DNA of 64,000 nt from Prevotella sp. (GTDB lineage Bacteria > Bacteroidota > Bacteroidia > Bacteroidales > Bacteroidaceae). Under the pieces are notes generated by a model that saw nothing but the letters and a program-made list of their open reading frames with translations, ran no database searches and was not told the DNA's origin. The stretch covers positions 23,554 to 87,553 of the forward strand of contig JAFTFG010000007.1 in assembly GCA_017449675.1 (NCBI GenBank). The letters run 5' to 3'. Each line of letters opens with the position of its first letter. Position 1 is the stretch's first letter. Shown here piece after piece: positions 7,235 through 56,482 of this stretch. The position numbers and the translations under genes were made by a program.

Positions 7235-7240
7235 GAATAC

Positions 7241-8527: not shown

Positions 8528-8535
8528 TTTCTTTT

Positions 8536-9796: not shown

Positions 9797-9838
9797 ACTT
9801 TTTTCTGGTCTTTCTCGTTGTTCTAGTGAAACTAGTAA

Positions 9839-13409: not shown

Positions 13410-13432
13410 GATGTCTTTATTAAAATATGTTG

Positions 13433-13440
13433 CAAAAGTA
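13433..13440 (-). promoter_or_regulatory. Bacteroidetes -7 element for the methyltransferase gene
   Basis: TACTTTTG on the minus strand, 24 bp before the ATG at 13409. It supports that start and forms a divergent promoter pair with 13503-13510. Confidence 0.6.
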
Positions 13441-13502
13441 CGAATAAATGAGCAAAGCACAAAATAAATTCAGATTTATTTCATTATTCTGAATCTTTTG
13501 TG

Positions 13503-13510
13503 TAATTTTG
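13503..13510 (+). promoter_or_regulatory. Bacteroidetes -7 element for the inositol cluster
   Basis: TAATTTTG, 30 bp before the histidine kinase ATG at 13541. It is the only good promoter match seen upstream of the run 13541-20156, so it probably drives all five genes. Confidence 0.55.
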
Positions 13511-13540
13511 CCACCAAACAATTAAAACAAACGAATTACA

Positions 13541-14800: not shown

Positions 14801-14815
14801 GGTGTTGTGAGAACT

Positions 14816-15628: not shown

Positions 15629-15630
15629 TA

Positions 15631-16338
15631 ATGATGGGATATACAAATATCAAAGGCACAAAGGCCTTTATCTTTGATTATGGTGGTACGCTGGATTCTG
15701 GAGGCAACCACTGGGGGAAGGTCCTTTGGCATTCCTATGTCGCTATGGGCGTACCTGTCACGGAAGAGCGTTTTAGGGATGCTTATGTGTATACGGAGCG
15801 TATGTTGGACAAACAACAGATTATTGGGCGAGACTTTACGTTCTATCAGACATTAGATGCTAAGATACGGATAGAACTTGAATATCTCGGAATGACATCC
15901 TATCATTCGCAGTTGCTGGAAAACGTATACCGGCAAGTAGTGAGAAATACTGATCAGAGTAGGCAGGTGCTACACCAACTGAAGAAATATTATCCTATTG
16001 TTTTAGTAAGTAATTTCTATGGCAACCTTATGACCGTCACAGAGGAGTTCGGCTTGTCTGACTGTTTTGATGCTGTCATAGACTCTGCCGTAGTGGGGGT
16101 GCGAAAGCCCGATCCTCAGATTTTCTCCTTGGGAGTGGAGGCTTTAGGTCTGGCTGCTCATGAGATAACTGTCGTAGGCGACAGTATTAAGAAGGATATT
16201 CTGCCCGCTCAGCAGGTGGGGTGCCATACGATATGGATTCGAGGAGAACAATGGTTAGACCTTCCTGTTGATGAGACGATACCGGATGTAATCATTCATA
16301 ATATAAAACAATTAGAACAACTATATGAGACAAATTAA
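15631..16338 (+). CDS. HAD-superfamily hydrolase, likely inositol-phosphate or phospholipid phosphatase
   Basis: A 235-residue HAD hydrolase. Motif I is FDYGGTLDSGG: the nucleophile Asp is present, but the usual second Asp (D-x-D) is Gly. Motif II is VLVSNFYGN, followed by VGVRKPDPQIF and the acidic motif IV VVGDSIKKDI. Inositol-lipid clusters of Bacteroides encode a phosphatase that removes phosphate from phosphatidylinositol phosphate, and this gene sits in the matching place beside the inositol-phosphate synthase, whose start overlaps it by 14 bp. The substrate is inferred. The missing general-acid Asp could mean altered or slow catalysis. Confidence 0.75.
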   Translation: MMGYTNIKGTKAFIFDYGGTLDSGGNHWGKVLWHSYVAMGVPVTEERFRDAYVYTERMLDKQQIIGRDFTFYQTLDAKIRIELEYLGMTSYHSQLLENVYRQVVRNTDQSRQVLHQLKKYYPIVLVSNFYGNLMTVTEEFGLSDCFDAVIDSAVVGVRKPDPQIFSLGVEALGLAAHEITVVGDSIKKDILPAQQVGCHTIWIRGEQWLDLPVDETIPDVIIHNIKQLEQLYETN

Positions 16339-42248: not shown

Positions 42249-45200
42249 ATGAAGAAACTATTACTTTTTTGTTGGATGGTGATGCTGTGTGCAGTATCAT
42301 CCCAAGCAGCGATTACGATTACAGAGCAAGGCGGTTGGTTTGAGGCCGGCTATGTGACATGGACCGGTGACAATCAAGACTATACTGTGTACATCCGTCC
42401 GGAAGGTGGCTCCTATACGGCTATTGACAAGGAACTGGTGCGTAAGTATGCCGACTATTATCGTGCTGACATGGTAGGCTTGAAGGCTGGTAACTATCAG
42501 TTCAAGATTGAAGGAAAGAGTAATCATGATGTGGTAGAGTCCGACGTGTTCTATGCTACACCACATGATCGCTCCGGTTTTGCCCATGTTGGTATGCCGG
42601 GTGGTATCGGTGCCTATAAGAACGATGGAACGCTGAAGGACAATGCCCGTGTTATTTATGTGACAGCCAATACTGCTAAAACGGTAAAATGTAACGTCTC
42701 AGACGGGAAGACGGATACAGAGTACACTGGTCTGCAGGCTATCATTGCTGCCTTTGAGAAAGGTAAAGAGACCCGTCCGTTGGCTATTCGTATTGTCGGT
42801 ACTGTCAAGAAAGCCGATTGCGATTCCTTTGGTTCTAGTGCAGAGGGTATTCAGGTAAAGGGTAAGAGTGGCTCTGTCGATATGAATATCACGATAGAGG
42901 GTATCGGAAATGACGCTACCACGCATGGTTTCGGATTCCTTATCCGTAATGCATGTAGCATCGAACTTCGTAACTTTGCCAATATGATTTGTATGGACGA
43001 CTGTGTGTCTCTCGATACGGATAACCATCATGTGTGGGTTCATAATATGGACTTCTTCTATGGTGGTACAGGAGGTGACTCTGACCAGGCAAAGGGTGAT
43101 GGTACTGTGGATATCAAGGGTAAGTCAAGTCATATCACCGTATCCTACAACCACTTCTATGATTCTGGTAAGTGCTCACTAGGTGGTATGAAGAGCGAGA
43201 CGGAGGCTTGTTGGATGACCTATCACCACAACTGGTTCGACCACTCCGACTCTCGTCATCCTCGTATCCGTACAGCCTTTTATCACTGCTACAATAACTA
43301 TTACGACGGTAACTCTAAGTATGGTGTCGGTGTGACATGTGGCGGTTCTTCCTTCGTAGAGGCCAACTATTTCCGTAACTGTAAGTATCCGATGCTGATC
43401 TCCAAGCAGGGTACTGATGCTGAGGGCTCCGGTACATTCTCCGGTGAGAATGGTGGTGTCAATAAGGCTTACAATAACGTGATTATCAACCCTCGCAAGG
43501 TGCAATACTATGATGGTAGCCAGACTGATGGTAAATGGGATGCCGTACTTGTTGACAATCGTGACGACGAAGTGACAGCCAAGGCATTCACCGGTGGTAC
43601 TTCATATAATAGTGCGGCAGATGTAGCAGCACGTACTACTTATATTGAGAATAAGATGGACAATCCAGAGGATATCCCAGAGATCGTACGTGGCACACTG
43701 GGTGCAGGCCGCCTGCAACATGGTGACTTCAAGTGGGTGTTCAACAACTCCCTACAGGACGAGAACTATGATGTGATTGGTGAGTTGAAGACGGCATTGG
43801 TTAATTATGAGTCTACAGTAATCAGTTTTGCTGACGGAACAGCACTGAGTAGTCGTACTCCCGCCACATCAACAGTTGATGGCGGTGACGGTAAGGGTAT
43901 TGACCAGGAGACCAATGATGCCTATGTGCCCTCATGGGCTGGTGGCGGTGGTTCTATCGCTTCAGGTAAACAGGTGATTGGTGAGGATGGACAGTATTTC
44001 TGGTTTAATGCGGCTAATGCGACACAGGTAAACACCTATCTCACTGATGGTGGCGAGAATGGTGTCAGTACGATTTCCACGACAGGTGAGTTTAAACCTA
44101 GCCGTGAGATCACCAATTCAAAGGTCGGCTCATGCTCTGACTATATCGGTTCGATCCTCATTCCCAGCAAGGGACACCTTACATTATATAATGCCGCAGG
44201 CATCTCTTCTGCCGCATTCTATGTCTCCAGTGGCGGTGAGCAGACCTGGCAAATCTCTGTCAGCACTGACGGTAACTCATTTACTAACATGGGTAGTGCT
44301 ATTTCCGGTAAGACGGCTGAGCATCCGACAGCGGCTTTTACCGATGCAGCAGGTACTTATAAATATGTACGTATCACCAATACCAATAGTAGTGCCCGTG
44401 ACGTACAGGGTATCAAGGTGTATGTCCCTCTTGGCGCTTCTGATCTGACGGCTCTGACAACTTCCACTATTGAGATCAATGAAAGTCAGACCTATACGCT
44501 GACTAAAGGTACCGACTATAGTACATCCTGTACTGGTGCTATTACCTACAAGTCCAGTTCTACGAAGGTAGCCACGATCGATGAGAATGGTAAGATTACC
44601 CCATTGTCACAGGGTAAGACAACTATTACCTTGACACAGGCAAATGATGAACTTCTGAATGGTGGTACGCTAACCTTCAAGGTGGAAGTGACTGACAACC
44701 GTGCGGCATCAGACTTGACATTGGCAACAGAAGCAGAGGTTACGGTAAATAAGGGTAATACCTTGCAGATTAGTGCTACCTGTTCGAATGCCCTGACATA
44801 TACCTCAGGGGCTCCCTCTATCGCTACCGTAAGTAATACGGGCTTGATCACTGCTGTCGCATTTGGTACGGCTACTATTACTGTCAGTGATCCGGGAAGC
44901 GCCACCCACAGACCGGGGCAGAAGACCATTGTGGTGACGGTTCCAGATAACCGTGCTGTTTCCGCATTAGCCGTTACACCTGACGAGATTACTGTCAACC
45001 GTAATGCGACCACAGATATCTCTACAACCGTTTCTAATGCCAAGGGTGCCGTGTCCTATCGTTCTACTGACGAGGAGATTGCTACCGTAAATGCTGCGGG
45101 TGTTGTAACGGGTATCCTTTCTGGTGAAGCAGTTATTGTTGTGTCTGACCAAGGCGACGATACTACAAAACCGGGTACTGTCAATGTGACTGTCAAGGTG

Positions 45201-46742
45201 AACGATCCACGTGCTGCCTCTTTGTTTGAGGTCACTTCCAATAAGGACGTTACGATTGATCTGGCAGCGGCCGTTACCTCTAATATTACTACCAGTGGTG
45301 CCGCAGGTGCAGTCACTTACGAGTCTTCTGACGAGACGGTAGTCTCAGTCAGCGCAGAGGGTGTGATGACTGGTAAGAAGGCCGGTACAGCCGTTGTTAC
45401 TGTCAAAGATGCCGGTAATGACAGTTATCTTCCTAAGTCTGTTGATATCAATGTTACTGTATTGGCTGTTCCCACTTCCGACCCTGTCACATGGGCTGTT
45501 AGTGAATCCTCCACGTTGAAGAGCGGAACATCTATATCTAATGGTGGCACAGCCATATTCATCAGTACCGACGGCTCTGCCTCAGAACTGCAATATATCG
45601 GTGGCTCTAACTGTAAGATTGAGGTGAGCAAGGGCGTAGGTACCTTCAAGATGGGTGGTGCTACACAATATTCTAGTAATGTACTCAGCACTCGCTACTT
45701 TGTCTTGCCGGCCTTGTCCGGATCGGGTACACTGAGTGTGACCTACGGATCCAGCAACCAGAGCAATCTGACCATCAAGAAGACGACAGGAAAGAATGAT
45801 GAGGCACTGGCTACTATTACCAAGACGGCGACAAGTGTGGAACTGACCGACCTGGATAATACAGTGCTTTATATCTCCGCAGCAAGCAAGGCTTATCTCA
45901 GTGCTATCTCTTGGACTCCCAGTGCTCCTGATGCTCGTGCAGCCTCCACATTCGCACTGACTTCAACAAACACGGTACAGGTGGACGTAGATGCTACAAG
46001 TGCCATTACCTATACGAATGCCGCAGGTGCTGTGACCTTTGAGTCGGATAACACTTCTGTAGCCACGGTGGATGCAGAAGGTGTGATCAAAGGTGTTGCC
46101 GCAGGAACTGCTACGATTACGGTGAAGGATGCCGGTTCTGCTGAGGTGAAGGGTGCCACGCTCACCATCGTAGTCACTGTAGGCTCTGGTTCCACACCGG
46201 GAACGGAAGTCGTTATCTATGACTTTAACAGTGGAGTAGGTACGACAACGGCAGGGACAGGGGATGCTGCTCCGGCTGCCTATACTGCCCCCACATCATT
46301 TAAACTTGGTGCTAATGCACAGTATATTGTCATCAAACCCAAGGATGGAGAGGTCTTTAAGAGTGGTGATAAAGTGTCGATCGTAGGACAGGTGGGAGGC
46401 GATAATAAGACCGTTGGACTCTGCCTCTGCCCCACAGCAGTACGTTCTACCGATTTCGGGGTCTATGCAAGTTCCAGTTCTGCCAAGAATACAGATACGG
46501 AAGTCTCTGGTACGTTGACACTGACAACTGATGCAACGGAACTCTATCTTTTCAGATATGACACTTCGGCAACAACGATCAAGAGCCTGAAGATTACCCG
46601 TTCGTCATCTACAGGGATTCAGCATATTGATATTCCCAAGGAGTTCAATGGGGCTGTCTATGACCTGATGGGCCGTAAGGTACAGACTCCGAAGAAAGGA
46701 CAGGTCTATATCATCAATGGGCGTAAGGTTCTCTTTAAGTGA
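42249..46742 (+). CDS. Secreted multidomain pectate lyase (PL1-type)
   Basis: A 1497-residue protein with a signal peptide (about residues 1-20). After a short Ig-like region the PL1 parallel beta-helix spans about residues 120-450, with DGTVDIKGKSSHITVSYN and the catalytic-region motif HHNWFDHSDSRHPRIR. It is followed by a discoidin-like stretch (about 600-730), then several Big2-type immunoglobulin-like repeats (each ending in a G-x-A-x-I/V-T-V-x-D signature), a further beta domain, and a tail VYDLMGRKVQTPKKGQVYIINGRKVLFK. That tail resembles the C-terminal signal of type IX-secreted Prevotella proteins. It cleaves polygalacturonate by beta-elimination. Secretion by type IX is inferred. Confidence 0.9.
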   Translation: MKKLLLFCWMVMLCAVSSQAAITITEQGGWFEAGYVTWTGDNQDYTVYIRPEGGSYTAIDKELVRKYADYYRADMVGLKAGNYQFKIEGKSNHDVVESDVFYATPHDRSGFAHVGMPGGIGAYKNDGTLKDNARVIYVTANTAKTVKCNVSDGKTDTEYTGLQAIIAAFEKGKETRPLAIRIVGTVKKADCDSFGSSAEGIQVKGKSGSVDMNITIEGIGNDATTHGFGFLIRNACSIELRNFANMICMDDCVSLDTDNHHVWVHNMDFFYGGTGGDSDQAKGDGTVDIKGKSSHITVSYNHFYDSGKCSLGGMKSETEACWMTYHHNWFDHSDSRHPRIRTAFYHCYNNYYDGNSKYGVGVTCGGSSFVEANYFRNCKYPMLISKQGTDAEGSGTFSGENGGVNKAYNNVIINPRKVQYYDGSQTDGKWDAVLVDNRDDEVTAKAFTGGTSYNSAADVAARTTYIENKMDNPEDIPEIVRGTLGAGRLQHGDFKWVFNNSLQDENYDVIGELKTALVNYESTVISFADGTALSSRTPATSTVDGGDGKGIDQETNDAYVPSWAGGGGSIASGKQVIGEDGQYFWFNAANATQVNTYLTDGGENGVSTISTTGEFKPSREITNSKVGSCSDYIGSILIPSKGHLTLYNAAGISSAAFYVSSGGEQTWQISVSTDGNSFTNMGSAISGKTAEHPTAAFTDAAGTYKYVRITNTNSSARDVQGIKVYVPLGASDLTALTTSTIEINESQTYTLTKGTDYSTSCTGAITYKSSSTKVATIDENGKITPLSQGKTTITLTQANDELLNGGTLTFKVEVTDNRAASDLTLATEAEVTVNKGNTLQISATCSNALTYTSGAPSIATVSNTGLITAVAFGTATITVSDPGSATHRPGQKTIVVTVPDNRAVSALAVTPDEITVNRNATTDISTTVSNAKGAVSYRSTDEEIATVNAAGVVTGILSGEAVIVVSDQGDDTTKPGTVNVTVKVNDPRAASLFEVTSNKDVTIDLAAAVTSNITTSGAAGAVTYESSDETVVSVSAEGVMTGKKAGTAVVTVKDAGNDSYLPKSVDINVTVLAVPTSDPVTWAVSESSTLKSGTSISNGGTAIFISTDGSASELQYIGGSNCKIEVSKGVGTFKMGGATQYSSNVLSTRYFVLPALSGSGTLSVTYGSSNQSNLTIKKTTGKNDEALATITKTATSVELTDLDNTVLYISAASKAYLSAISWTPSAPDARAASTFALTSTNTVQVDVDATSAITYTNAAGAVTFESDNTSVATVDAEGVIKGVAAGTATITVKDAGSAEVKGATLTIVVTVGSGSTPGTEVVIYDFNSGVGTTTAGTGDAAPAAYTAPTSFKLGANAQYIVIKPKDGEVFKSGDKVSIVGQVGGDNKTVGLCLCPTAVRSTDFGVYASSSSAKNTDTEVSGTLTLTTDATELYLFRYDTSATTIKSLKITRSSSTGIQHIDIPKEFNGAVYDLMGRKVQTPKKGQVYIINGRKVLFK

Positions 46743-46825: not shown

Positions 46826-46936
46826 GAAAAGTGTTTTAGACATTATTTGAATAAAAAATATTACGCTGAAAGACTTTACAACTACTAATTCAAATCAGCA
46901 TACGGGCGGGATGTGAATCCCGCCCGTACTGTTTTT
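46826..46936 (+). ncRNA. Candidate small RNA (about 110 nt) or 3'UTR-derived RNA
   Basis: A TACTTTTG -7 element at 46812-46819 predicts a start near 46826, and a strong terminator ends at 46936. The approximately 110 nt between hold no open reading frame of note. The -33 element is missing, so this could equally be the 3'UTR of the pectate lyase mRNA. No known RNA family is recognised. Between the terminator and the promoter at 47024 the sequence is AT-rich with nothing further seen. Confidence 0.4.
46901..46936 (+). terminator. Strong intrinsic terminator
   Basis: A 12-bp perfect GC-rich stem (46901-46912 with 46917-46928), loop GTGA, then CTGTTTTT. It ends the pectate lyase transcript and/or the candidate small RNA. 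Confidence 0.9.
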
Positions 46937-47023: not shown

Positions 47024-47031
47024 TATCTTTG
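47024..47031 (+). promoter_or_regulatory. -7 element for the FHA-kinase operon
   Basis: TATCTTTG, 40 bp before the first ATG (47072). It is the only promoter match found upstream of the run 47072-55808. No -33 match. Confidence 0.5.
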
Positions 47032-47071: not shown

Positions 47072-47776
47072 ATGAAACAAGACGAAACTTTTGTAAAGGG
47101 TGGTAACAACAATCCTTACGCACGTTCCAATGGTGGTCAACGTACAGGTAGTGAGACTTATATCCCAGGTATGAATGACTATACGCCAGGAAGTGCTCCG
47201 GTAGCAGGGCCTGCTATGCAGAAGAAACCCAACACCCCGGTGGTAGGTTTCTTGTATTCCATCTCTCGTAAGGGTATTGGTGAGTATTGGCCCCTCCATC
47301 TAGGTACCAATACTATCGGTAGGGCAGATGATAACGATATCTGCCTGAAGGAAATGTCTGTATCAGGCAAACACGCAACCCTGAGTATTAAGCAGATGAA
47401 GAGTACACACAAACTGATTGCCAGTATCCGTGATACGGGCTCCAAGACGGGTATGTATCTGAATGACGAGGAATTGGACTATGAGAATCATTCCTGTAAG
47501 TCAAACGATATTATTACTATCGGTGCTAACTACAAGTTGTTGCTACTCCTGATTGATGCGGAGGAATACGGTCTTACAGTTGCTGAAGGTTTTGTTGAGG
47601 ATAAGGAAGTAGGTAATGACTTCCCTTATCAGACACAGGGGCAGGGTGGCTATATTGATGATGCGACACAGAGCAAGTTCCGTCCTTATAGTTCAGACAA
47701 CCGTAATGTGGACACAGGTACGGTGGATCTGAGTGGTCCCAGCTTTGATGAGCCTGGCGGAACAGAATTGATGTAA
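47072..47776 (+). CDS. Soluble FHA-domain protein
   Basis: A 234-residue cytoplasmic protein. A polar N-terminal stretch of 50 residues is followed by an FHA domain: Gly-Arg at 83-84 (TIGRADDNDI), S-x-K-H at 98-101, and SKTGMYLN at 124-131 in the place of the usual N-G-T-x-V-N. FHA domains bind phosphothreonine peptides. The Thr/Ser-rich N-terminal and C-terminal tails (VDTGTVDLSGP) could be phosphorylation targets. First gene of the seven-gene operon; the kinase gene starts 21 bp after it. Confidence 0.85.
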   Translation: MKQDETFVKGGNNNPYARSNGGQRTGSETYIPGMNDYTPGSAPVAGPAMQKKPNTPVVGFLYSISRKGIGEYWPLHLGTNTIGRADDNDICLKEMSVSGKHATLSIKQMKSTHKLIASIRDTGSKTGMYLNDEELDYENHSCKSNDIITIGANYKLLLLLIDAEEYGLTVAEGFVEDKEVGNDFPYQTQGQGGYIDDATQSKFRPYSSDNRNVDTGTVDLSGPSFDEPGGTELM

Positions 47777-47797
47777 TACCAGTAGAAAATCATAACG

Positions 47798-49423
47798 ATG
47801 CCTTTAATATATATACAAGGAGAGGAAGAAAAAAGGAAACGCATACACTATGAGGTTGATCCGGAACTACCTTCATTGGGAGAAGGTGGTATGGGACAAG
47901 TACTGAAAGGTGTCAGAGTTGATGAGACGAGTGGTGTCCGTATGGATGTGGCTATCAAGTTCTTGTTTGAGGACTTACCTGCACATGCTATTGAACGGGC
48001 TCGCCGTGAGGCCTCTATCCAGATACACAATGAGAATCTGGTGGAGATGTTCGGCTTCATTGAAGTTGTGGAGAACCCTGAGAGTTCTCGTCCGGTCAAG
48101 CGCTACCATGTGGTCAGTGAACTCTTACAGGGTGTGATGCTCTTCGACTTGCTGAATGGTAAGACGACGGATAAGAACGGTCATGAGATTCCGTTCGCTC
48201 AGGAACTATATACGAAATACCAGAATGATCGTTTCGGCTTTGCCGTCTTCATCGTGAAGAATATCCTGTCCGGTCTGATGGCCTTGCATGACAAGGGCTA
48301 TATCCATCGTGACCTGGATCCGAGTAATATTATGATTACAACGGACCGTAAGGTGAAGATTATTGACTTTGGTATCGCCAAGCAGTTGGAAAACCTGAAT
48401 ACACAGGATCAACAACTGACGAGTACCGGACAGTTTATCGGAAAGGCAGCCTATGCCGCTCCGGAACTGGTGTTGGGTGACGTACATAATCAGGACAAGA
48501 CGACGGATATCTATGCGGTGGGCATTATGCTCTTCCAGTTTATCACGGGTAGCATGCCTTTCGAGGGGACCATGGCGGAACTGATCAAGAAACAGTTGAA
48601 CGAGAAGATTCCTCTCAAACTGATTCCCTATAAAGCCGTACGGAATATCGTAGCCAAGGCGACAGCCAAGAAACAGGCAGACCGCTATCAGTCGGCTACG
48701 GAGATGCGCGTTGATCTGGAACATCTGTCGAAGAATGATGCAGTACCTTCTGCCACCAGTGCAGGACAGATGGTGGCCGGTATCACTGACGTGAAAGGAA
48801 ATAAGAATAAACTTATCGGTATTGTTGCTGCTGTCGTTGTTGTGGTAGGTGCTGTCATCGGTGTTGCCACGATGGGCTCTGGTTCTTCGGAAGAGTCTCA
48901 GCCGGAAGCGACACAGGTTACTGCGCAGCAAACGCCGACTCCTCAGCAGGATATTAGTACGTTGGTGGCTGATGCCATGAACCAGATGGACAATCCTTCA
49001 ACTGTCAAGGAGGGTGTTAAGCAGTTGACAGAGGTGGTGACCAGAAACGGTGACAACAAGGACGTTGCTGACGGTATGGCCTTATTGGCTGCCCTGACGC
49101 AACCAGAGGATGTCACCTATTGTTCCGATGAGATCAAGGCACTGAGGACTGCTACGGCTGACTATATCACGAGGGATGCGGGCAAGGCACATGCCTATGC
49201 GGAACAAGCCGTCAAGTGTAACCCTGAGAGTTATAAGGCGATATTTGAATTGGCTACAGACTATCTGGCTGGTGAGCCTCGTATGAATAAGGAGCAGAAC
49301 CTGCAGAAGGCATTGGAACTGTTTACGAAAGGACAGAAATATGCTACTGCCAAAGACGACAAAGAGTATATCGCCCTCTTTAATACTCGTCTGGATCAAG
49401 TGAATGGTCTGTTGGCTCAATAA
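47798..49423 (+). CDS. Transmembrane Ser/Thr protein kinase with C-terminal repeat domain
   Basis: A 541-residue protein. The kinase domain (about residues 20-310) has a glycine loop GEGGMGQV (28-35), Lys54 in VAIK, catalytic loop HRDLDPSN (170-177), DFG at 190-192 and the APE-like AAPEL. The catalytic-loop Lys of the usual HRDLKPxN is Asp174. A membrane helix follows (about 339-359), then a Gln/Pro linker and helical, TPR-like repeats outside the membrane (about 385-541). It should phosphorylate FHA-binding partners in the operon. The loop substitution is unusual and its effect is unknown. Confidence 0.9.
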   Translation: MPLIYIQGEEEKRKRIHYEVDPELPSLGEGGMGQVLKGVRVDETSGVRMDVAIKFLFEDLPAHAIERARREASIQIHNENLVEMFGFIEVVENPESSRPVKRYHVVSELLQGVMLFDLLNGKTTDKNGHEIPFAQELYTKYQNDRFGFAVFIVKNILSGLMALHDKGYIHRDLDPSNIMITTDRKVKIIDFGIAKQLENLNTQDQQLTSTGQFIGKAAYAAPELVLGDVHNQDKTTDIYAVGIMLFQFITGSMPFEGTMAELIKKQLNEKIPLKLIPYKAVRNIVAKATAKKQADRYQSATEMRVDLEHLSKNDAVPSATSAGQMVAGITDVKGNKNKLIGIVAAVVVVVGAVIGVATMGSGSSEESQPEATQVTAQQTPTPQQDISTLVADAMNQMDNPSTVKEGVKQLTEVVTRNGDNKDVADGMALLAALTQPEDVTYCSDEIKALRTATADYITRDAGKAHAYAEQAVKCNPESYKAIFELATDYLAGEPRMNKEQNLQKALELFTKGQKYATAKDDKEYIALFNTRLDQVNGLLAQ

Positions 49424-49444
49424 ACAAGGAAAGAGGAAAACGAC

Positions 49445-50395
49445 ATGCCTGGACAGGTAACAAAGAAAGGGAATATAATCTATCTGAATGCCTATGGACA
49501 ATGGTATCAGTATGATGAGACGAGAGCCCCTCTGGGTGCTGGCGCTATGGGTGTCGTATATGTCGGGAAAAACTGTCAGACGAACGAGCCGGTGGCAGTG
49601 AAAAGAGTCGTCGACCGTTATGCCAATAATCCTGAGATACGCAGAAGAGCCCATCAAGAGGCTGATTTGATGTTCAGTCATCCCAATCTGGTGGAGATGC
49701 TGGGTTGTTGTGAGGTGGCTCCCGGTCAGGGACCGATCTTTATTATCAGCCGCTACGTGAAGGGCGAGAACATCGATAAGTTCATCAATGCCCATGTACG
49801 TTCTCTTCCTAATGCCGAACATCGCATTTGTGAACTGTTTCTCCCTGTGCTTGACGCATTGGCCTATATCCATACGAAAGGAATTATCCATATGGATATC
49901 AAACCGTCGAATATCATGATGGAGCAGGGACGGAATGTGAGATTGATGGACCTGGGTATTGCTGATGTGTCAGATACGGTTAACAGTTCTACATCGGGTA
50001 TGATGGGAACTCCTAAATACGCGGCTCCTGAGCAGTTCTCTGATATTGAGCATAAACCGCAACTGACTTCCGCAACGGATATCTATGAGGCAGGAATCAC
50101 CCTGTTTGAACTGATTACCAAGCAGAATCCCTTCTCAGCGACAACAGTGGCTGAGTCAAAGGCACTGCACCATGGAATGGTACTCCCTAAAGTATCTGGA
50201 ATCTCTGACTCTGTCTTTGAGGTGACACGCAAGGCGACAGCGATTCATCCGGACGACCGCTATCAGAGTGCGAATGCGATGAAAGCGGCCTTGAAGGATG
50301 CACTGCCCCCTCGTAATTATTCTAAATTCGACAGGTTCATCAAGAAGGTGCAAGATAGTGGAGTTCCTGTCATAGGAGAGTTTTTTAAGAAATAA
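49445..50395 (+). CDS. Soluble Ser/Thr protein kinase
   Basis: A 316-residue kinase with no membrane segment. Glycine loop GAGAMGVV (31-38), Lys53 in VAVK, catalytic loop HMDIKPSN (149-156) and DLG at 169-171 instead of DFG. The Arg of the HRD motif is Met, so it is a non-RD kinase, unlike its neighbour. AAPEQF follows. The short C-terminal tail is basic. It lies between the transmembrane kinase and the PP2C gene (6-bp gap), so the two kinases and the phosphatase are made together. Confidence 0.92.
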   Translation: MPGQVTKKGNIIYLNAYGQWYQYDETRAPLGAGAMGVVYVGKNCQTNEPVAVKRVVDRYANNPEIRRRAHQEADLMFSHPNLVEMLGCCEVAPGQGPIFIISRYVKGENIDKFINAHVRSLPNAEHRICELFLPVLDALAYIHTKGIIHMDIKPSNIMMEQGRNVRLMDLGIADVSDTVNSSTSGMMGTPKYAAPEQFSDIEHKPQLTSATDIYEAGITLFELITKQNPFSATTVAESKALHHGMVLPKVSGISDSVFEVTRKATAIHPDDRYQSANAMKAALKDALPPRNYSKFDRFIKKVQDSGVPVIGEFFKK

Positions 50396-50401
50396 GACAA
50401 T

Positions 50402-51802
50402 ATGAACGCAATAAAGACATCTTTGCCTTTTGCAGGCTATTGGGATACTCGACAGGGAGGCCGTCCGGAGAATCAGGATTCCTGTGGCTTCCTGGATACT
50501 GACAAGGGCCTGATTGCCGTAGTCTGCGATGGTATGGGAGGAGGCCCCGGCGGACAATTGGCTTCTACGATAGCCGTACAGAAAATCGTGGAGTATGTAG
50601 TGGGGGCACCCCAAGAGATGCCTCGTACGGAGATGGTTGCCAATGCCATAGAATATGCTCATCAGGCTATTCTTTCCAAAACGGTTGAGGTCCCGGCCTT
50701 GCGAGGCATGGGCTCAACTGCTACAGTAGTGCTTATCAACGAACAGTCGGCAGTCTTGGCACATGTGGGTGACAGTCGTATCTACCAGTTCCGTCGCGGA
50801 AGGAAAATATTTCGTACGGCCGACCATTCAATGGTGGGTGAACTGGTGCGCAATGGTACACTGACTGAGGAACAGGCAAGACTGTCTTCACAGTCGAATA
50901 TCATCTCCAAGGCTTTGGGGAGTAAGTTGACAAATCTGGCGGAGGTCACGGAACGTCCCTATGAGAAGGGTGACCGTTTCATGCTTTGTACGGATGGTAT
51001 CTGGGGGGCTATGCCTGAACCGGAACTCATAAAACTGGTGGCTAAGACCTCCTCATTATCAGGTGCCGTCGATGCCGCTGTGTTAGACGTGGATGAGATT
51101 GGTCGCAACAATGGCAATAATCATGATAATCTGACGATTGCCTTATTAGAAACGAAACAAGATTCAAAATTGAAAGAGAAAATGAGTAAGAAGACATTAC
51201 GGTTATTGATAGGACTGGCAGTCATCTGTCTGCTGAGTCTGATTTTGAATTTTGCTCTTATCTTCCAGAGCAAGCCAAACAAGCATGATGCCGAGAAAGA
51301 GGAGATGGTGAAGGAACTGGAGACGAGAGGGCAACGCATTAGAACTCTTGAAGACAGTATCAATGTCCTGTTGGGGGATGTCGCCAATACAAAGCAGGAA
51401 GTGGCTAATGCGACTTTGCAGGTTGCCAAGGAGAAGGAGAGTGCGGCAGAAAAAGCGAAGACAGAGGCAGAACAGAAAGCGAAAGAGGCTCAGGCTGCCG
51501 CTGATAAGGCACAAGCAGCCGCCGACCAGGCCCAGGCCGCTGCTGATGCTGTCAAAAAATCACGTAACGGTATTATTGCCCAACTCTCCAAGATCAAAGA
51601 CATGCAGGAGAACCCCCAACGTCAGCAACTGCGTAAGACGGTGGCAGAACAGTTGAAGACCCTTGCCGACAAGGATTCCAAGAACAAGGCTACCTACGAC
51701 TATGTGAGAGCAAGGTTGGCAGATAAGATTGCAACGGACAATCCTGCCAATAGTAAAAGCCACTATAATATTTTAATCGGAAAACTACAATCTATTAAAT
51801 AG
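50402..51802 (+). CDS. Membrane-anchored PP2C-type phosphatase with coiled coil
   Basis: A 466-residue protein. The PP2C domain (about 1-250) has all metal motifs: NQD (Asp26), DGMGGG (Asp43), GSTATVV, HVGDSRIY, DGIW (Asp198) and HDNLT (Asp242). A membrane helix follows at about 266-288, then a coiled coil of about 100 residues rich in Ala, Glu, Lys and Gln (297-395) and a short C-terminal helical region. It would remove phosphate from targets of the two kinases. The coiled coil lies on the outer side of the membrane and may serve as a sensor or scaffold. Confidence 0.93.
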   Translation: MNAIKTSLPFAGYWDTRQGGRPENQDSCGFLDTDKGLIAVVCDGMGGGPGGQLASTIAVQKIVEYVVGAPQEMPRTEMVANAIEYAHQAILSKTVEVPALRGMGSTATVVLINEQSAVLAHVGDSRIYQFRRGRKIFRTADHSMVGELVRNGTLTEEQARLSSQSNIISKALGSKLTNLAEVTERPYEKGDRFMLCTDGIWGAMPEPELIKLVAKTSSLSGAVDAAVLDVDEIGRNNGNNHDNLTIALLETKQDSKLKEKMSKKTLRLLIGLAVICLLSLILNFALIFQSKPNKHDAEKEEMVKELETRGQRIRTLEDSINVLLGDVANTKQEVANATLQVAKEKESAAEKAKTEAEQKAKEAQAAADKAQAAADQAQAAADAVKKSRNGIIAQLSKIKDMQENPQRQQLRKTVAEQLKTLADKDSKNKATYDYVRARLADKIATDNPANSKSHYNILIGKLQSIK

Positions 51803-51811
51803 CGGTAGCCT

Positions 51812-52684
51812 ATGAAGACGATAACGATTGGTAGAGGAGAGGGCTGTCATATTCTCATCGATGATGAGATGATGAGCCGTCGTCATGCTATTATCAAGAT
51901 TCCTACCTTCGGGCGGATGGAGATTGTTGATATGAGCAAGAATGGTACTTTTGTCAATGGAGTCCGTCTGCGTCCTAACGTTCCATTTCCTGTAACTCGC
52001 AAGGATGTTGTTAATTTTGCGGATGTGCAACAGTTGGACTGGTCAAAGATCCCTGATCCCTTGAAATATTATAAATTAGGTGCACTGATTGCTGCTGGAC
52101 TTATTGTCCTCTTGTTGCTCATCGCTCTCGTAAAAGGCTGTGTCAGCAGTTCTTCGGAACCTTCCAGTCAATCTGCGACCGAACAAGTGAGAAAATCAAT
52201 GCAGCCTATAGAACAACAGGAAGGACCTCTGACGGGAAGTGACCAGGAGGGTGGTCAGGATGCTACGTCTACGGAGAATGCGGAAGAAGAGTCATCAGAT
52301 CCTATTAAGAACTTCTATCAGTCTGTTCATACCAACAAAGAGCAGATAGAGGCTGCGGAACGGGCTCGTCAGCAAAAAGCGAAAGACGCTCAGAAGGCGA
52401 AGGATGCTCAGAAGGCTGAGGAAAATGCGAAACCCAAGGAGCCCCAGAAACCTCAGGAGACTGCCAAGCCTCAAGAGACGAAGAAACCTCAGGAGACTGC
52501 CAAGCCTCAAGAGACGAAGAAACCTCAAGAGACTGCCAAGCCTCAGGAGACAAAGAAACCTCAAGAGACAGCCAAGTCCCCAACGACTAAGAAACCTCAA
52601 CAGAGCCAGATGTCCCAAGGGGTACAGTCTCCACAGACCACTCAGAAACCTACACAAGCAGGGGTATCAGCGGCAAAGAAATAG
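51812..52684 (+). CDS. Membrane FHA-domain protein with repetitive tail
   Basis: A 290-residue protein. An N-terminal FHA domain (Gly-Arg at 7-8, SRRH at 22-25, SKNGTFVNG at 42-50) is followed by a membrane helix (about 89-108), an acidic linker, and a tail containing a 12-residue tandem repeat of Lys-Pro-Gln-Glu-Thr words (about residues 205-260). The repeat is visible in DNA as near-identical 36-bp units around 52455-52575. The tail should cross the periplasm, perhaps reaching the cell wall. It lies 9 bp after the phosphatase gene. Confidence 0.88.
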   Translation: MKTITIGRGEGCHILIDDEMMSRRHAIIKIPTFGRMEIVDMSKNGTFVNGVRLRPNVPFPVTRKDVVNFADVQQLDWSKIPDPLKYYKLGALIAAGLIVLLLLIALVKGCVSSSSEPSSQSATEQVRKSMQPIEQQEGPLTGSDQEGGQDATSTENAEEESSDPIKNFYQSVHTNKEQIEAAERARQQKAKDAQKAKDAQKAEENAKPKEPQKPQETAKPQETKKPQETAKPQETKKPQETAKPQETKKPQETAKSPTTKKPQQSQMSQGVQSPQTTQKPTQAGVSAAKK

Positions 52685-52716
52685 AATACATATCATCATT
52701 AAAAACCAATAAAACT

Positions 52717-54381
52717 ATGAAGATTATTAAAATTGGTAGTTCGCAGTCTTGCGACCTCGTATTGAACAGCCAATACGTCAGCAGTTTACATGCAGAGATG
52801 ACTATTCTTGATGACGGACAAATCATTCTGGAGGATAAGAATAGTAAAAACGGTACTACAGTAGGTAACAAGAAACTGGAGCCGGGAAGAGAGGTGACAG
52901 TACAGCGCGGCGACCGGATCAGTTTTGCCGATGTCCCCTTGGTATGGGCCAAAGTACCGGTAGGCGAGAAACTCACCAACTATAAGAGTGTCTATAATAT
53001 CGGTTCTAACTACCGTAATGAGATCATTCTTAATAGTCAGACCGTGAGCCGTTACCATGCCTCTGTCCGAGTTGGTAAGGACGGTAAGGTGTATATCCAT
53101 GACAATGGCAGCCGTAACGGTACGATGGTGAATGGGGTGAAGATTGCCGCCAACAAGGACGTGCGTATCAAGAAGGGTGATAATATCGTTTGTGGTACAG
53201 AGGATGTCACCGACCAGGTGATGGCTTTGATGCCTAAGGTTAATAAGGGCTTGATTTATGGTATTGCAGGTGCTGTTGGGGTTCTCGCCCTGATTGGTAT
53301 ACTCTTCGCCCTGTGGCCTAAAGGAGAGGCTGAGCCTGTAGCAGCACTGACCAGTGACGGTGACACTACTTACGTCGCTCCTTCTACCCCTTCCAGTGTA
53401 TCTCCTGAAAAATATCGTAATACGGTGGTGTATGTAGGTGCTCAATACCATTTCACTGCTGAGTTTGAAGATAACCCCATGCCTGATACCTGGAATGGTA
53501 TTATTGATGATATCGCTTCTAAGCAGCCTTATTGTGCTACCGCTTTCTTCCTTGACCGTAAGGGTTATATGGGTACCAACCGCCATGTGGCAGTACCTTG
53601 GGATTATCGTACGAAAGAGGAGGACAACTGGATTCGTGAGGCTATTGAGTATCGTATCGAACTGATGCGCCGTACCTGTATGTTCATGCAGTCAGGAGGT
53701 GATACCCGCTATACTGTCAGCGACAAGATGGGTAGAGATTTCTCGGAGGCAACGATGAGGGCTTTCGTACAGACAAAACTGGGTGATGCTATCATCAAGC
53801 ATATCTCAAAATATGGCACTGCATGGCGTGCGGAGTTGACGAAGATTGCTGACCGCATGATGCGCTCTCGTTATGACGTGGCTGGTGAGATGGAATATAT
53901 CACGGTAGGTTATGCTGGTCGTAACTATACGCACCTTGATGAGTTCCAGCGTTGTGATGTTGTTGCTGATTCCAAAGACAAGGATATCGATGTTGCTCTC
54001 TTACAGTTGAATGACAAGAAGACTCCTCAGGAGGTTGAATTACTTTTCAACCCAGATGATTTCTGCACAGAGCGTCTGGTACCCTTGAAGGATAAACTCT
54101 TTACCATTGGCTATCCCGCAGGTCTGAACTGGGCACTTGACAGAAAGACGAAGTCGTTGGAGCCTAGTATCAAGGAGACTAAGTGTAGTAAGGAACCCAG
54201 TAAATATGACTTTGAGTTCCAGGAGCAGTCGGTTGGCGGCAGCAGTGGCTCTCCCGTCTTTAACGAGGCTGGTCAGTTGGTTGGTGTCCTCTGGGGAGGT
54301 ACTAGTGTGGCCGGTGGTTATACCAAGGCGGTGCAGGCTAAGTTCTTGAAGAAGATTTATGACGAAGAAGTTGGCCAATGA
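52717..54381 (+). CDS. Double-FHA transmembrane trypsin-like protease
   Basis: A 554-residue protein. Two FHA domains: residues 1-78 (S-x-x-H at 22-25, NSKNGTTVG at 42-50) and 91-165 (SRYH at 111-114, GSRNGTMVNG at 131-140). Then a membrane helix (about 179-200) and a trypsin-like peptidase domain: His290 in MGTNRHVA, Asp425 in DIDVALLQL and Ser510 in VGGSSGSPVF. The order gives cytoplasmic phospho-binding modules and an outward-facing protease. This suggests phosphorylation inside controls proteolysis outside. It shares an ATGA overlap with the next gene. Confidence 0.9.
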   Translation: MKIIKIGSSQSCDLVLNSQYVSSLHAEMTILDDGQIILEDKNSKNGTTVGNKKLEPGREVTVQRGDRISFADVPLVWAKVPVGEKLTNYKSVYNIGSNYRNEIILNSQTVSRYHASVRVGKDGKVYIHDNGSRNGTMVNGVKIAANKDVRIKKGDNIVCGTEDVTDQVMALMPKVNKGLIYGIAGAVGVLALIGILFALWPKGEAEPVAALTSDGDTTYVAPSTPSSVSPEKYRNTVVYVGAQYHFTAEFEDNPMPDTWNGIIDDIASKQPYCATAFFLDRKGYMGTNRHVAVPWDYRTKEEDNWIREAIEYRIELMRRTCMFMQSGGDTRYTVSDKMGRDFSEATMRAFVQTKLGDAIIKHISKYGTAWRAELTKIADRMMRSRYDVAGEMEYITVGYAGRNYTHLDEFQRCDVVADSKDKDIDVALLQLNDKKTPQEVELLFNPDDFCTERLVPLKDKLFTIGYPAGLNWALDRKTKSLEPSIKETKCSKEPSKYDFEFQEQSVGGSSGSPVFNEAGQLVGVLWGGTSVAGGYTKAVQAKFLKKIYDEEVGQ

Positions 54382-55808
54382 TGTTCTTGAAGAAGATTTT
54401 TGTAATACTATCCCTGTGTCTTGCCCTGCCTATGGTGGGGCAAGCACAGTCTGCTCATTGGGCTGTCTCCCCGAGTTATCAGTCGATAACCCGTTTCTCT
54501 GATAATCTGTTTAAAGTAAAGACTTCTGCCAGTACGGGCATTTGTGACGAGAATGAGAAATGGGTGGTCTCTCTGGCGATGGACTCCATTACCAATCTTA
54601 CTAATGGTTTCGCCCTTGCAATGACGAAGAAAAAGGACTTGTACAAGATTGAATATATCATTAGAGAGAATGGTACACGTGAGACGGTGAAAGAGGATGT
54701 TTATGCTGGTGATTATCCCTATTTTGTGGAAGACCGCTGTGTCGTGATGAACAAGAAAGGGAAATATGGTTATTTGGATCCCTCAGGAAAGTTGGCAGTC
54801 CCCTGCACCTATACAGCAGTCCTGCCCTTCCATAATGGGGTGGCTCATGTGTCAAAGGCGAAAGGTGGCTTTAGCGGTTTATTGGATAAACTGAAAAGCG
54901 GCAGCAGGAAATCCGGTACCCTCTATGAGGTGGGTAAAGACGGTAAGATTGTCAAGGGAAGTAAGGATGGTACTTATCTGGAAATCGACAAGACTGGTAA
55001 GGTCCTCCGTTCTGTGGAGACGGTGCAAGGAAAGATTGATACGAAGAATATTAACCAGCCATATAAGAGTACTCCGGATCCTTCCTATACCCGTTTTACG
55101 GAGAATAAACTCTATGGTTACAAGAAAGGCGGTTCTGTGGCTCTTCCGGCTCAGTTTGAGGAAGGCGAACGAGTCTCTGATGGCTATGCCATTGTGATGG
55201 TTGACCATCTGTTTGGTGTCGTCAAATTCAATACCGCCTCCGTAGGATGTAAGGTCAGTGAGACTGGTGGGAAGATGAAGGCGGAGGCTACGATTCCTTC
55301 TGTATGGGAGAACAAAGCGGCTTCAATCATTCGTGTGGTGAATGATGCCTCTAGGAAGACCTATGAGATGCAGGGTACGGATACGCAGCGTACACTCGTT
55401 GCTGATGTCTCGAATGAGAAAGGAAAGAAGGTCTATGAACTGGCTTGTGAGAAACTCATCCTTTGGCGTAGTTACACCAAGAGTACGAAATCGGAAGATG
55501 TAGGTGATGCAGGCAAGGCATCGGCCGGTGGAGGTATCACCGTCAGCGCACCCTCTACTGTCTCTGCCAATGCCAAGAATATCTGTGCGGTGAATATCCA
55601 TGTGGTCAACCGTGGTAATACGACTCGTACGATTTCACTCTCACTCAGTACCGGACAGAGCAGTTCTATCAAACTGGCTGCCGGTAAGTCGGGGAATGTG
55701 ACGGTCAATGTCCCTGTGACCAAAGATACTAAATGCAAAATTACTGCTAGTGGCGGTGGGGCTACCAGTTCCTGTTCTACAACGCTGAAAGCAAAATTTG
55801 TATTATAA
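54378..55808 (+). CDS. Secreted WG-repeat-like protein of the FHA-kinase operon
   Basis: A 476-residue protein with a signal peptide (about residues 1-24). The middle part contains WG-repeat-like units (KYGYLDPSGKLAVPCTYTAVLPFHNGVAHVSK and GKDGKIVKGSKDGTYLEIDKTGKVL). The C-terminal 110 residues look like a beta-sandwich (SAPSTVSANAKNICAVNIHVVN). The start overlaps the protease stop by 4 bp, so translation is coupled. A secreted substrate or partner of the membrane protease is a reasonable inference; the function is not known. Confidence 0.7.
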   Translation: MMFLKKIFVILSLCLALPMVGQAQSAHWAVSPSYQSITRFSDNLFKVKTSASTGICDENEKWVVSLAMDSITNLTNGFALAMTKKKDLYKIEYIIRENGTRETVKEDVYAGDYPYFVEDRCVVMNKKGKYGYLDPSGKLAVPCTYTAVLPFHNGVAHVSKAKGGFSGLLDKLKSGSRKSGTLYEVGKDGKIVKGSKDGTYLEIDKTGKVLRSVETVQGKIDTKNINQPYKSTPDPSYTRFTENKLYGYKKGGSVALPAQFEEGERVSDGYAIVMVDHLFGVVKFNTASVGCKVSETGGKMKAEATIPSVWENKAASIIRVVNDASRKTYEMQGTDTQRTLVADVSNEKGKKVYELACEKLILWRSYTKSTKSEDVGDAGKASAGGGITVSAPSTVSANAKNICAVNIHVVNRGNTTRTISLSLSTGQSSSIKLAAGKSGNVTVNVPVTKDTKCKITASGGGATSSCSTTLKAKFVL

Positions 55809-55819: not shown

Positions 55820-56482
55820 GTGAGAATAGAACCTATTGCCTATTTCCATAGTCCTCTGACTTCGAAGTTTGGGATTCCCAGACAAAGCGGTCTTGTGACA
55901 TCGTTAAAAGGAACCATCGTCCTGACTAAGGAATATGCGCGGGCTGAAGCCTTGCGGGGATTAGAGGATTATGACTTCTTATGGCTGATATGGGGATTCT
56001 CAGGAAATGAGGCAGCGGAGAAACATACAACGGTGAGGCCACCGCTGCTAGGAGGTAACGAACGGATGGGCGTGTGGGCTACACGCTCATCGTTTCGTCC
56101 TAATAACCTGGGACTTTCATCTGTCCGTATCCTTCATGTCTATCCTGAGACAACATGTATTGAGGTGCTAGGGGCGGACCTGATGGATGGGACACCTATT
56201 TATGATATCAAACCTTATCTTGCCTATGTGGACAGTCATCCGGGAGCAAGAGGCGGGTTTACGGACCGTCATCAGTGGCAGCACCTGCGTATAGAAGTCC
56301 CACCCTCTCTTCGTCCGTGTTTTGACGAGGAAAAGTGGGCTGTTATCGAGGATATCCTCTCTCTTGATCCTCGCCCGCATTATCATGATGATACGGATCG
56401 CATCTATGGCATGCCTTTTGAGGACAAGGATATCCGTTTTGTCGTCTCTGACGGCTTGTTAAAGGTCAAGGATATCGTATAA
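55820..56482 (+). CDS. trmO: tRNA (N6-threonylcarbamoyladenosine37-N6)-methyltransferase
   Basis: A 220-residue protein of the YaeB/TrmO family: IEPIAYFHSPLTSKFGIPRQSGLV at the start, then RPPLLGGNERMGVWATRSSFRPNNLGLSSVR. It uses SAM to methylate t6A37 in some threonine tRNAs. The start is GTG at 55820, 11 bp after the WG-repeat gene, so it may be carried on the same transcript although its role is unrelated. Confidence 0.92.
   Translation: MRIEPIAYFHSPLTSKFGIPRQSGLVTSLKGTIVLTKEYARAEALRGLEDYDFLWLIWGFSGNEAAEKHTTVRPPLLGGNERMGVWATRSSFRPNNLGLSSVRILHVYPETTCIEVLGADLMDGTPIYDIKPYLAYVDSHPGARGGFTDRHQWQHLRIEVPPSLRPCFDEEKWAVIEDILSLDPRPHYHDDTDRIYGMPFEDKDIRFVVSDGLLKVKDIV

What the first reader, a model, noticed from the sequence alone, without database searches (positions are those of the whole stretch)
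47072..55808. Seven-gene FHA / dual Ser-Thr kinase / PP2C / FHA-protease operon
Seven tightly packed co-directional genes (gaps 6-32 bp, one ATGA overlap) encode a complete phospho-signalling circuit. It has three FHA proteins carrying four FHA domains, two kinases of different types (one transmembrane, one soluble non-RD), one PP2C phosphatase with a membrane helix and coiled coil, a transmembrane protease with two cytoplasmic FHA domains and an outward trypsin-like domain, and a secreted WG-repeat-like protein. The layout suggests that phosphothreonine signals inside the cell gate proteolysis in the periplasm. Kinase-phosphatase-FHA sets are known in bacteria (for example in type VI secretion control and TerY-P modules), but no type VI, TerY or defence effector genes are present here. 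I cannot name this as a described system.
Basis: partly seen in the sequence, partly recalled or inferred. Interest (0 to 1): 0.85.

Follow-up and report, generated by a model that had tools for sequence, protein, structure and literature searches.

The report
Phosphothreonine relay with FHA-anchored protease
Some gut bacteria of the order Bacteroidales carry, side by side as one block, genes for what looks like a phosphorylation switch (two kinases, a phosphatase and phosphate-reading proteins) wired through the cell membrane to a protease and a secreted protein; it recurs in many species and I found no published description of it.

Summary
The seven genes are real and exactly placed, and not a one-strain accident. 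A scan with the first FHA protein found 60 loci; of the 53 with at least 8 kb downstream, 49 keep FHA1–K2–PP2C–F5–protease in order, and 18 of the 60 show the window's seven-gene order, including Prevotella, Paraprevotella, Muribaculaceae and Bacteroides records. One same-genus genome has matching flanks without the block.

New points. FHA1's tails carry four threonines invariant in 21 of 21 aligned proteins, so FHA1 looks like the kinases' substrate hub. Only F5's FHA domain keeps the whole phosphothreonine pocket in all 55 copies; the protease's second FHA never has the phosphate-contacting Arg. K1 has Asp where Ser/Thr kinases have Lys in 56 of 57 readable copies. The protease fold resembles DegS/HtrA, triad intact. 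Six other loci have inverted repeats before the operon, five of them around a promoter box.

It fails KKP, T6SS-linked and TerY tests. New variant of a known kind; no function tested.

The parts
47072..47776 (+). FHA1 ('A'), soluble FHA protein with low-complexity N and C tails; probable phosphorylation hub
   Evidence: Pfam FHA 2.6e-13; no TM in 56 of 56 homologues scored
47087..47089 (+). Thr6 codon, tail site 1 (ETFVKG; elsewhere KTVIxG)
   Evidence: invariant in 21 of 21 aligned; loose pattern in 55 of 61
47156..47158 (+). Thr29 codon, tail site 2 (ETYIPGM; elsewhere GTVVPGM)
   Evidence: invariant in 21 of 21 aligned; pattern in 54 of 61
47720..47722 (+). Thr217 codon, tail site 3 (GTVDL; elsewhere GTVGxDG)
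   Evidence: invariant in 21 of 21 aligned; pattern in 52 of 61
47762..47764 (+). Thr231 codon, tail site 4 (GGTE; elsewhere GGT[VI])
   Evidence: invariant in 21 of 21 aligned; any Thr in the last 9 residues in 59 of 61
47798..49423 (+). K1, Hanks-type kinase - TM - C-terminal region predicted periplasmic
   Evidence: Pfam Pkinase 2.5e-35; TM 339-357
48317..48319 (+). K1 Asp174 in HRDLDPSN, in place of the catalytic-loop Lys
   Evidence: Asp in 26 of 26 same-genus copies incl. window and in 56 of 57 named pieces that show the loop, the other (L127) Ser; 7 further pieces lack the loop
49445..50395 (+). K2, Hanks-type kinase, HMDIKPSN/DLG; no TM here, internal TM in 35 of 51 homologues scored
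   Evidence: Pfam Pkinase 6.2e-41
50402..51802 (+). PP2C phosphatase - TM - alanine-rich coiled-coil-like C-terminal part
   Evidence: PP2C_2 1.4e-17; Alanine_zipper 3.4e-4, below its cut-off; TM 269-287
51812..52684 (+). F5: FHA - TM - Lys/Pro/Gln-rich arm, predicted periplasmic; only FHA of the operon with the full R/S/H/N pocket in every copy
   Evidence: Pfam FHA 2e-16; R8 S22 H25 N44 in 55 of 55
52446..52604 (+). tandem repeat (36-bp unit, 4.4 copies) coding KPQET units in the F5 arm
   Evidence: TRF score 239; 7 KPQET copies
52717..54381 (+). FP: FHA-FHA-TM-S1 (HtrA/DegS-like) protease with helical insertion about 294-383
   Evidence: Pfam; AlphaFold2 mean pLDDT 88.9; Deg2/DegP/DegS/HtrA1 folds
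53584..53586 (+). catalytic His290 codon of FP
   Evidence: H in 53 of 56, 3 gaps
53989..53991 (+). catalytic Asp425 codon of FP
   Evidence: D in 53 of 56, 3 gaps
54250..54252 (+). catalytic Ser512 codon of FP
   Evidence: S in 53 of 56, 3 gaps
54378..55808 (+). secreted WG-repeat protein with a C-terminal beta-rich part
   Evidence: WG_beta_rep 2.3e-17; AlphaFold2 pLDDT 84.5, mostly strand
46901..46928 (+). terminator-like hairpin of the upstream gene; left edge of the block
   Evidence: a similar hairpin region stands in the empty site
47024..47031 (+). TATCTTTG, Bacteroidales-type -7 box candidate (consensus recalled, not from a call); no inverted repeat pair around it
55820..56482 (+). 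TrmO, right flank, 11 bp after the block; not part of the module

Best explanation
A self-contained transmembrane phosphothreonine relay of Bacteroidales, gained or lost as one block. K1 (receptor-type kinase with a predicted periplasmic part) and K2 phosphorylate the four conserved threonines in the tails of the soluble hub FHA1; membrane-anchored PP2C removes the phosphates. The phosphorylated hub is read first by the FHA domain of F5, the one reader with an intact pocket in every copy, which gathers F5, the FHA-anchored HtrA/DegS-like protease FP and the enzymes into one inner-membrane assembly. The output acts in the envelope through the F5 arm, the protease and the co-encoded secreted proteins. 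In several other lineages the operon probably sits behind an invertible promoter. Shown by sequence: gene content, order, conserved residues, topology by hydropathy, one empty site, inverted repeats with promoter boxes in other loci. Inferred: which threonines are phosphorylated and by which kinase, who reads them, what the protease cuts, and that the promoter inverts.
For: Core order in 49 of 53 loci; seven-gene order in 18 of 60. Protein distances of A, K2, P, F5 and FP correlate (Mantel r 0.71-0.92, 44 loci, 0 of 999 permutations as high for each of 10 pairs; shared ancestry alone can give this). Four invariant Thr in otherwise variable tails. Motif [KRGEQ]T[VIFYL][VIFYL]x[GR] in 51 of 56 hubs against 2.4 expected from shuffled residues. 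F5 pocket 55 of 55; protease triad 53 of 53 ungapped. First PP2C: CDGMG 55 of 55, GDSR 54 of 55; DN[x][TS] in 76 of 77 PP2C copies. Internal TM by hydropathy: K1 48 of 54, PP2C 54 of 55, F5 49 of 50, FP 49 of 52. Empty site. Inverted repeats (score 15 or more) in 5 of 5 integrase-adjacent loci against 2 of 55 others, Fisher p 3.8e-6; outward -7 box 6-10 nt inside an arm in 5 of 6 (null 2.8%). Some other loci go on with an outer-membrane barrel and an S41 peptidase.
Against: No phosphorylation, binding or proteolysis has been tested. FHA1's own FHA keeps Arg in 27 of 61; FP FHA1 in 36 of 56 (Ser in the window); FP FHA2 in 0 of 55, so FP may not read phosphothreonine itself. K1's Asp (once Ser) at the Lys position could make it a weak or pseudo-kinase. 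Site 3 fails the pattern in 9 of 61 hubs, and the divergent L076 hub, left out of the alignment, lacks the motifs. The module is patchy: FHA1 in 7 of 393 order genomes, FHA-carrying FP in 25 of 398 same-genus genomes (my reading). Loci L105 and L139 lack PP2C, F5 and FP; L138 lacks K2; L140 lacks K2 and F5.
Confidence: 0.55

Rival explanations
1. Anti-phage defence module in the manner of KKP: phosphatase restrains toxic kinases; infection blocks the phosphatase and the kinases (or protease) stop the cell.
For: Two kinases plus PP2C with FHA readers, as in KKP (PMC11341870: abstract, section 8 and passages seen); patchy block with an empty site; both kinases hit PADLOC PD-T4-6 and mad6 models and PP2C hits PDC-M21C; integrase upstream in 5 of 60 loci.
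Against: The PADLOC hits look like general kinase and PP2C similarity. No CSD and no FHA fused to a kinase; no match of FP in the phage collection (the other proteins were not searched there). Flanks in window and relatives are a symporter, a porin, TrmO and the like. Secreted partners and predicted periplasmic parts fit envelope work better.
Confidence: 0.15
2. Outside-in envelope stress sensor: K1 and PP2C sense periplasmic state, and FP acts like DegS in envelope quality control, with the FHA part only tethering it.
For: Deg2/DegP/DegS/HtrA1 are the best folds for FP; both FP FHA domains lack Arg in the window; OMP barrel and S41 peptidase in other loci.
Against: No PDZ domain found in FP; no sigma or anti-sigma gene among the seven; the FP FHA pockets keep S/H/N in 54-56 copies, so some binding role is likely.
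Confidence: 0.22
3. Trans-acting control of a type VI secretion system encoded elsewhere (threonine phosphorylation pathway).
For: PpkA/PppA/Fha logic is the same: kinase, PP2C, FHA (PMC3953482 abstract; PMC5995506 search listing).
Against: TssC (PF17541) found in 5 of 24 carrier genomes, and in 1 of the 10 good-quality ones; the model rang in 0 of 14 control genomes.
Confidence: 0.04

Closest known systems
T6SS threonine phosphorylation pathway (PpkA-PppA-Fha)
   Same: Ser/Thr kinase, PP2C phosphatase, FHA protein; phosphothreonine read by FHA acts at the inner membrane (PMC3953482 abstract)
   Different: no T6SS genes in the block, TssC not found in 19 of 24 carriers; two kinases, three FHA proteins, FHA-anchored protease and secreted protein
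KKP kinase-kinase-phosphatase module (PMC11341870)
   Same: two Hanks kinases and a PP2C encoded together, FHA domains involved
   Different: no CSD or FHA fused to the kinases, membrane anchors, separate FHA proteins, protease and secreted partner; no prophage link found
DegS/HtrA proteases
   Same: S1-family protease fold (TMt up to 0.78 to DegS delta-PDZ among the 50 rows shown), single TM anchor
   Different: two N-terminal FHA domains, no PDZ found, about 90-residue helical insertion between His and Asp
PFNA operon of Bifidobacteria (PMC8430577, abstract and outline seen)
   Same: gut-bacterial operon with a Ser/Thr kinase that has a sensory region, and partners thought to face outward
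   Different: pkb2, fn3, aaa-atp, duf58, tgm; no AAA, DUF58 or transglutaminase hit among the seven here, other phylum
Bacteroides invertible promoters (PMC4747536, search listing only)
   Same: promoter between inverted repeats, switching surface traits
   Different: here in front of a kinase/FHA operon in other loci than the window; inversion itself not observed

Membership tests
KKP module | two kinases plus PP2C encoded together | tested here: met
KKP module | one kinase fused to a cold-shock domain, the other to FHA | tested here: not met
   no CSD or FHA hit in K1 or K2; definition from PMC11341870 section 8
KKP module | usually in prophages or beside mobile genes | tested here: inconclusive
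   no phage match for FP only; integrase upstream in 5 of 60 other loci; the whole window was not scanned for phage genes
T6SS threonine phosphorylation pathway | co-occurrence with a T6SS | tested here: not met
   TssC in 5 of 24 carriers; own genome is only 54% complete
T6SS threonine phosphorylation pathway | FHA protein or partner phosphorylated on Thr and bound through FHA | not testable with these tools
   only conserved Thr motifs and pockets seen
TerY-P / vWA-MoxR conflict systems | vWA (TerY) or MoxR component | tested here: not met
   no such Pfam hit in the seven proteins
S1 HtrA/DegS-type protease | trypsin fold with His-Asp-Ser triad | tested here: met
   53 of 53 ungapped; fold match
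S1 HtrA/DegS-type protease | C-terminal PDZ domain | tested here: not met
   none in the Pfam scan
invertible promoter (inverton) | inverted repeats flanking a promoter, recombinase nearby | tested here: met
   other loci only: repeats in 6, promoter box in 5, integrase beside 5; not in the window
invertible promoter (inverton) | both orientations seen in one strain | not tested
   only across species: toward FHA1 in L128, L138; away in L113, L120, L125

The most novel reading that the evidence does not exclude
A phosphothreonine machine that spans the inner membrane, phase-variable in some lineages: phosphorylation of a multivalent hub (FHA1) gathers FHA-anchored membrane proteins and thereby switches an HtrA-like protease on or off across the membrane, an inside-out counterpart of DegS, driven in part by a kinase class (K1) whose catalytic Lys is replaced by Asp.
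Probability: 0.28. Interest if true: 0.85.

Novelty: new variant of a known kind. Interest (0 to 1): 0.62.

Why it matters
My searches turned up little on Ser/Thr signalling in Bacteroidales. In the five carrier genomes checked, the module supplies 2 of 3, 2 of 6, 2 of 5, 2 of 3 and 2 of 4 of the Pfam protein-kinase matches (some of the others are weak), so it may be a main phosphothreonine circuit of these cells. It is present in named isolates (Prevotella communis E15-14, Bacteroides rodentium JCM 16496; Phocaeicola massiliensis). If the model holds, it links cytoplasmic phosphorylation to proteolysis in the periplasm, and in some lineages to phase variation of gut commensals. Four sites, one reader and one active-site serine give simple mutants to test.

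Tried and rejected
T6SS control: rejected. Phage or plasmid cargo: FP has no match in the phage collection (only FP was searched there); FHA1 matches one 'plasmid' record (OY726067.1, Phocaeicola massiliensis) that holds the whole set, but its neighbours look chromosomal by eye, so I do not count it as plasmid-borne. Invertible promoter in the window: none found. Fold search of the WG protein: only weak matches to beta-rich proteins (best TMq 0.22 among the 50 rows shown), no function drawn. The Thr motif in K1, PP2C and WG: no excess; in F5 and FP nearly all matches are the FHA core itself, and in K2 part are the glycine loop and part an N-terminal TVVQR-like stretch absent from the window's K2. 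Literature searches returned nothing describing the set; most subscription papers are not held.

Dropped rows and limits. The 21 FHA1 proteins are 21 of 23 in hand; I left out L072 (near-copy of L071) and L076 (divergent, without the motifs). Seven of 60 loci (L111, L113, L123, L126, L129, L130, L141) were left out of the order counts because less than 8 kb follows FHA1. My pattern counts (61 proteins) have real and false misses: L118, L128 and L139 show site-1-like motifs but were missed; L132 is cut at a contig end; L101 is out of frame at its end; L105, L138, L140 and L141 are truly different at site 2, and site 3 is not matched in L133, L134, L136 among others. The 60 loci were found through FHA1, so FHA1 is there by construction; the profiles were built from same-genus loci; several named loci are the same contigs as unnamed ones. 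One search missed FHA1 and K1 in L059 because an antisense ORF masked them (present in L083, same contig). The inverted-repeat comparison counts score 15 or more; at 13 or more, 4 of 55 other loci pass, simulated upstreams pass in 11 of 1140, and four of the 55 have less than 320 bp upstream. My first pattern for the last PP2C motif was ill-chosen (1 of 55) and was replaced (76 of 77, L125 missing). Of 64 K1 pieces, 57 show the catalytic loop: 56 Asp, L127 Ser (HRDISSDN); 7 are fragments without it. Protease-only matches in 28 of the 53 same-genus genomes were not counted as the module. L077-L081 were fetched but not examined.
Full report
OBSERVATION. Pfam supports every domain call. I name them FHA1 (A), K1, K2, PP2C (P), F5, FP (FHA-FHA-TM-protease) and WG. 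The window lies in a 1.8 Mb, 54% complete genome of 30 contigs; the nearest named matches of FHA1 are Prevotella records.

CONSERVATION. A search with FP in 119 relatives gave two further full-length copies (G037, G051) with the same seven genes in the same order. In 398 genomes of the same genus 53 had a match to the FP profile, of which 25 carry the FHA part by my reading of the table, one of them divergent (G416), one cut by a contig end (G237) and one split over two contigs (G023). A scan of the named genome collection with FHA1 gave 60 loci. In profile searches of these loci, 53 have at least 8 kb downstream; 49 of 53 keep FHA1-K2-PP2C-F5-FP in order, 48 have K2-PP2C-F5-FP directly in a row, 53 have a K1, and 52 have a WG or an 'LK' protein (no Pfam hit; hydrophobic N-terminus in 31 of 42). 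Exceptions to the core are L105, L138, L139 and L140. The window order is the start of 18 of the 60, including Paraprevotella (L117), Muribaculaceae (L120) and uncultured Bacteroides (L132). A second arrangement is FHA1-[K1]-K2-PP2C-F5-FP-LK-[FHA-TM]-PP2C-K1; 22 of 53 loci have more than one PP2C gene. Phocaeicola massiliensis has the window order plus LK. Sampling the order, 7 of 393 genomes (own included), in 7 of 206 genera, match FHA1; sampling the phylum, 2 of 395, both in the window's family and one being its own genome. At this sensitivity the module is a patchy Bacteroidales trait; one of the 60 loci bears a Bacillota name (L102), which I take for a mislabelled record.

A DISCRETE BLOCK. 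G035 (same genus, 94% complete) was among the relatives searched and is not among the 11 with an FP match. At the corresponding place it has the symporter, porin and metallo-hydrolase (91, 84, 80% identical), then a 954-aa gene matching residues 16-534 of the window's lyase, then TrmO, the histidine kinase and the two small genes (73-79%, 64%), in the window's order, with one extra 451-aa gene between histidine kinase and small genes. Between the 954-aa gene and TrmO lie 132 bp and no module gene. The left junction shares 65 bp at 80% (terminator region), the right 28 bp at 82% (start of TrmO). This is one empty site.

THE HUB. In 21 aligned FHA1 proteins the tail positions T6, T29, T217 and T231 never change (21 of 23 in hand, see dropped rows). 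By loose patterns over 61 proteins, sites 1-4 are found in 55, 54, 52 and 59. The motif is in 51 of 56 hubs against 2.4 expected from shuffled residues. That there are four sites and four FHA domains may be coincidence.

THE READERS. The residues that contact phosphate (Arg, Ser, His, Asn; identities recalled from Rad53 FHA1) were counted across copies, window included. F5: 55 of 55 for all four. FHA1: Arg 27, Ser 60, His 61, Asn 43 of 61 (window R84, T126). FP FHA1: Arg 36 of 56, Ser, His and Asn 56 of 56 (window S8). FP FHA2: Arg 0 of 55.

THE ENZYMES. K1 reads HRD[IL]DP[ST]N in 26 of 26 same-genus copies. Of 64 K1 pieces in the named loci 57 show the loop: 56 have Asp, one (L127) Ser, none Lys. 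Among the five strong protein kinases outside the module in five carrier genomes, four read HxDxK and one HNDIT; two weak matches were not looked at and others show no kinase-like loop. K2 keeps Lys in all 54 readable copies. PP2C motifs are kept. FP's triad is intact in 53 of 53 ungapped copies; its model (mean pLDDT 88.9, pTM 0.59) has two FHA domains, a TM helix 177-198 and an S1 protease with a helical insertion about 294-383; the best folds are Deg2, DegP, DegS and HtrA1, while a sequence-profile search ranks other S1 proteases (exfoliative toxin, V8/Spl) first, then HtrA and FHA chains.

OUTPUT SIDE. By hydropathy K1, PP2C, F5 and FP have one internal TM in most copies scored; K2 has one in 35 of 51. 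WG is predicted secreted and beta-rich. Genes that follow in other loci fall in families: one of 13 ORFs (two of them the same contig, L063 and L104) whose member L117 is an outer-membrane barrel, one of 5 ORFs whose member L140 is an S41 peptidase, and others; only one member of each was given to Pfam.

PHASE VARIATION. Five of 60 loci have a homologous tyrosine integrase just upstream of FHA1 (Pfam for one, L128). All five have an inverted repeat with 15-31 nt arms between integrase and FHA1; at score 15 or more only 2 of 55 other loci do (L120, and an AT-rich one in L089), Fisher p 3.8e-6. In 5 of the 6 good repeats (not L102) a TAnnTTTG box lies 6-10 nt inside an arm and points outward, toward FHA1 in L128 and L138, away in L113, L120 and L125; simulated segments do this in 2.8%. 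The window has no such repeat, only fixed boxes, the nearer at 47024.

COMPARISON. The logic is that of the T6SS threonine phosphorylation pathway (abstract of PMC3953482) without a T6SS: TssC in 5 of 24 carriers. It shares two kinases and a PP2C with KKP (PMC11341870: abstract, section 8 and passages) but fails its domain definition. vWA-MoxR systems (passages of PMC7159879) use trypsin-like and FHA domains, but no vWA or MoxR domain was hit in the seven proteins. I found no description of this set in searches of an open-access library.

VERDICT. A real, conserved module that couples a phosphothreonine circuit to a protease gene, unnamed as far as I can see; mechanism inferred at 0.55, direct protease gating at about 0.28.

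Noticed in passing
L029 (own genome, G000:C11:24000-40000), 7022-15590: A second phospho-locus, read by eye: zinc-ribbon protein, 982-aa kinase with TM segments, 1105-aa protein with several AAA modules, zinc-ribbon-FHA, PP2C. The kinase and zinc-ribbon proteins carry TIRP/TFRP-like motifs in their N-terminal tails.
   Followed up: no
L027 (G081:C133), 8703-17999: Another FHA set, read by eye: ABC transporter with three FHA domains, FHA protein whose tail repeats a KTxxF-like motif, vWA-like-TM-FHA protein, PP2C-TM, kinase, FHA protein with membrane domain; again a Thr-motif tail beside an FHA domain.
   Followed up: no
window 52446-52604: The F5 arm is a tandem repeat (KPQET units); F5 ORF length runs from 191 to 315 aa between named loci, apart from a 137-aa piece in L124.
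   Followed up: partly
protease-only hits, e.g. G231:C1:444124-445146: 28 same-genus genomes have a related trypsin-like protease match without the FHA part; in the three such loci tested (L024, L025, L026) no other module gene was near.
   Followed up: partly
L102 (JAMPAQ010000001.1): A 1.78 Mb contig titled Pseudoflavonifractor (recalled as Bacillota) holds the module in the window's order; the record is probably mislabelled.
   Followed up: no
L101 (Bacteroides rodentium JCM 16496): K1 is split into two ORFs and the FHA1 C-terminus is out of frame: decay or draft-sequence errors.
   Followed up: no
L146 (OY726067.1): A 140 kb 'plasmid' of Phocaeicola massiliensis with the complete module sits among genes that look chromosomal by eye (RND efflux, electron-transfer-flavoprotein-like).
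   Followed up: no
L127, 10748-12298: One K1 reads HRDISSDN, neither the module's Asp nor the usual Lys; a second K1 in that locus has the Asp.
   Followed up: no
window 42249-46742: 1497-aa pectate-lyase-like protein with five Big_2 stretches, directly upstream of the block.
   Followed up: no
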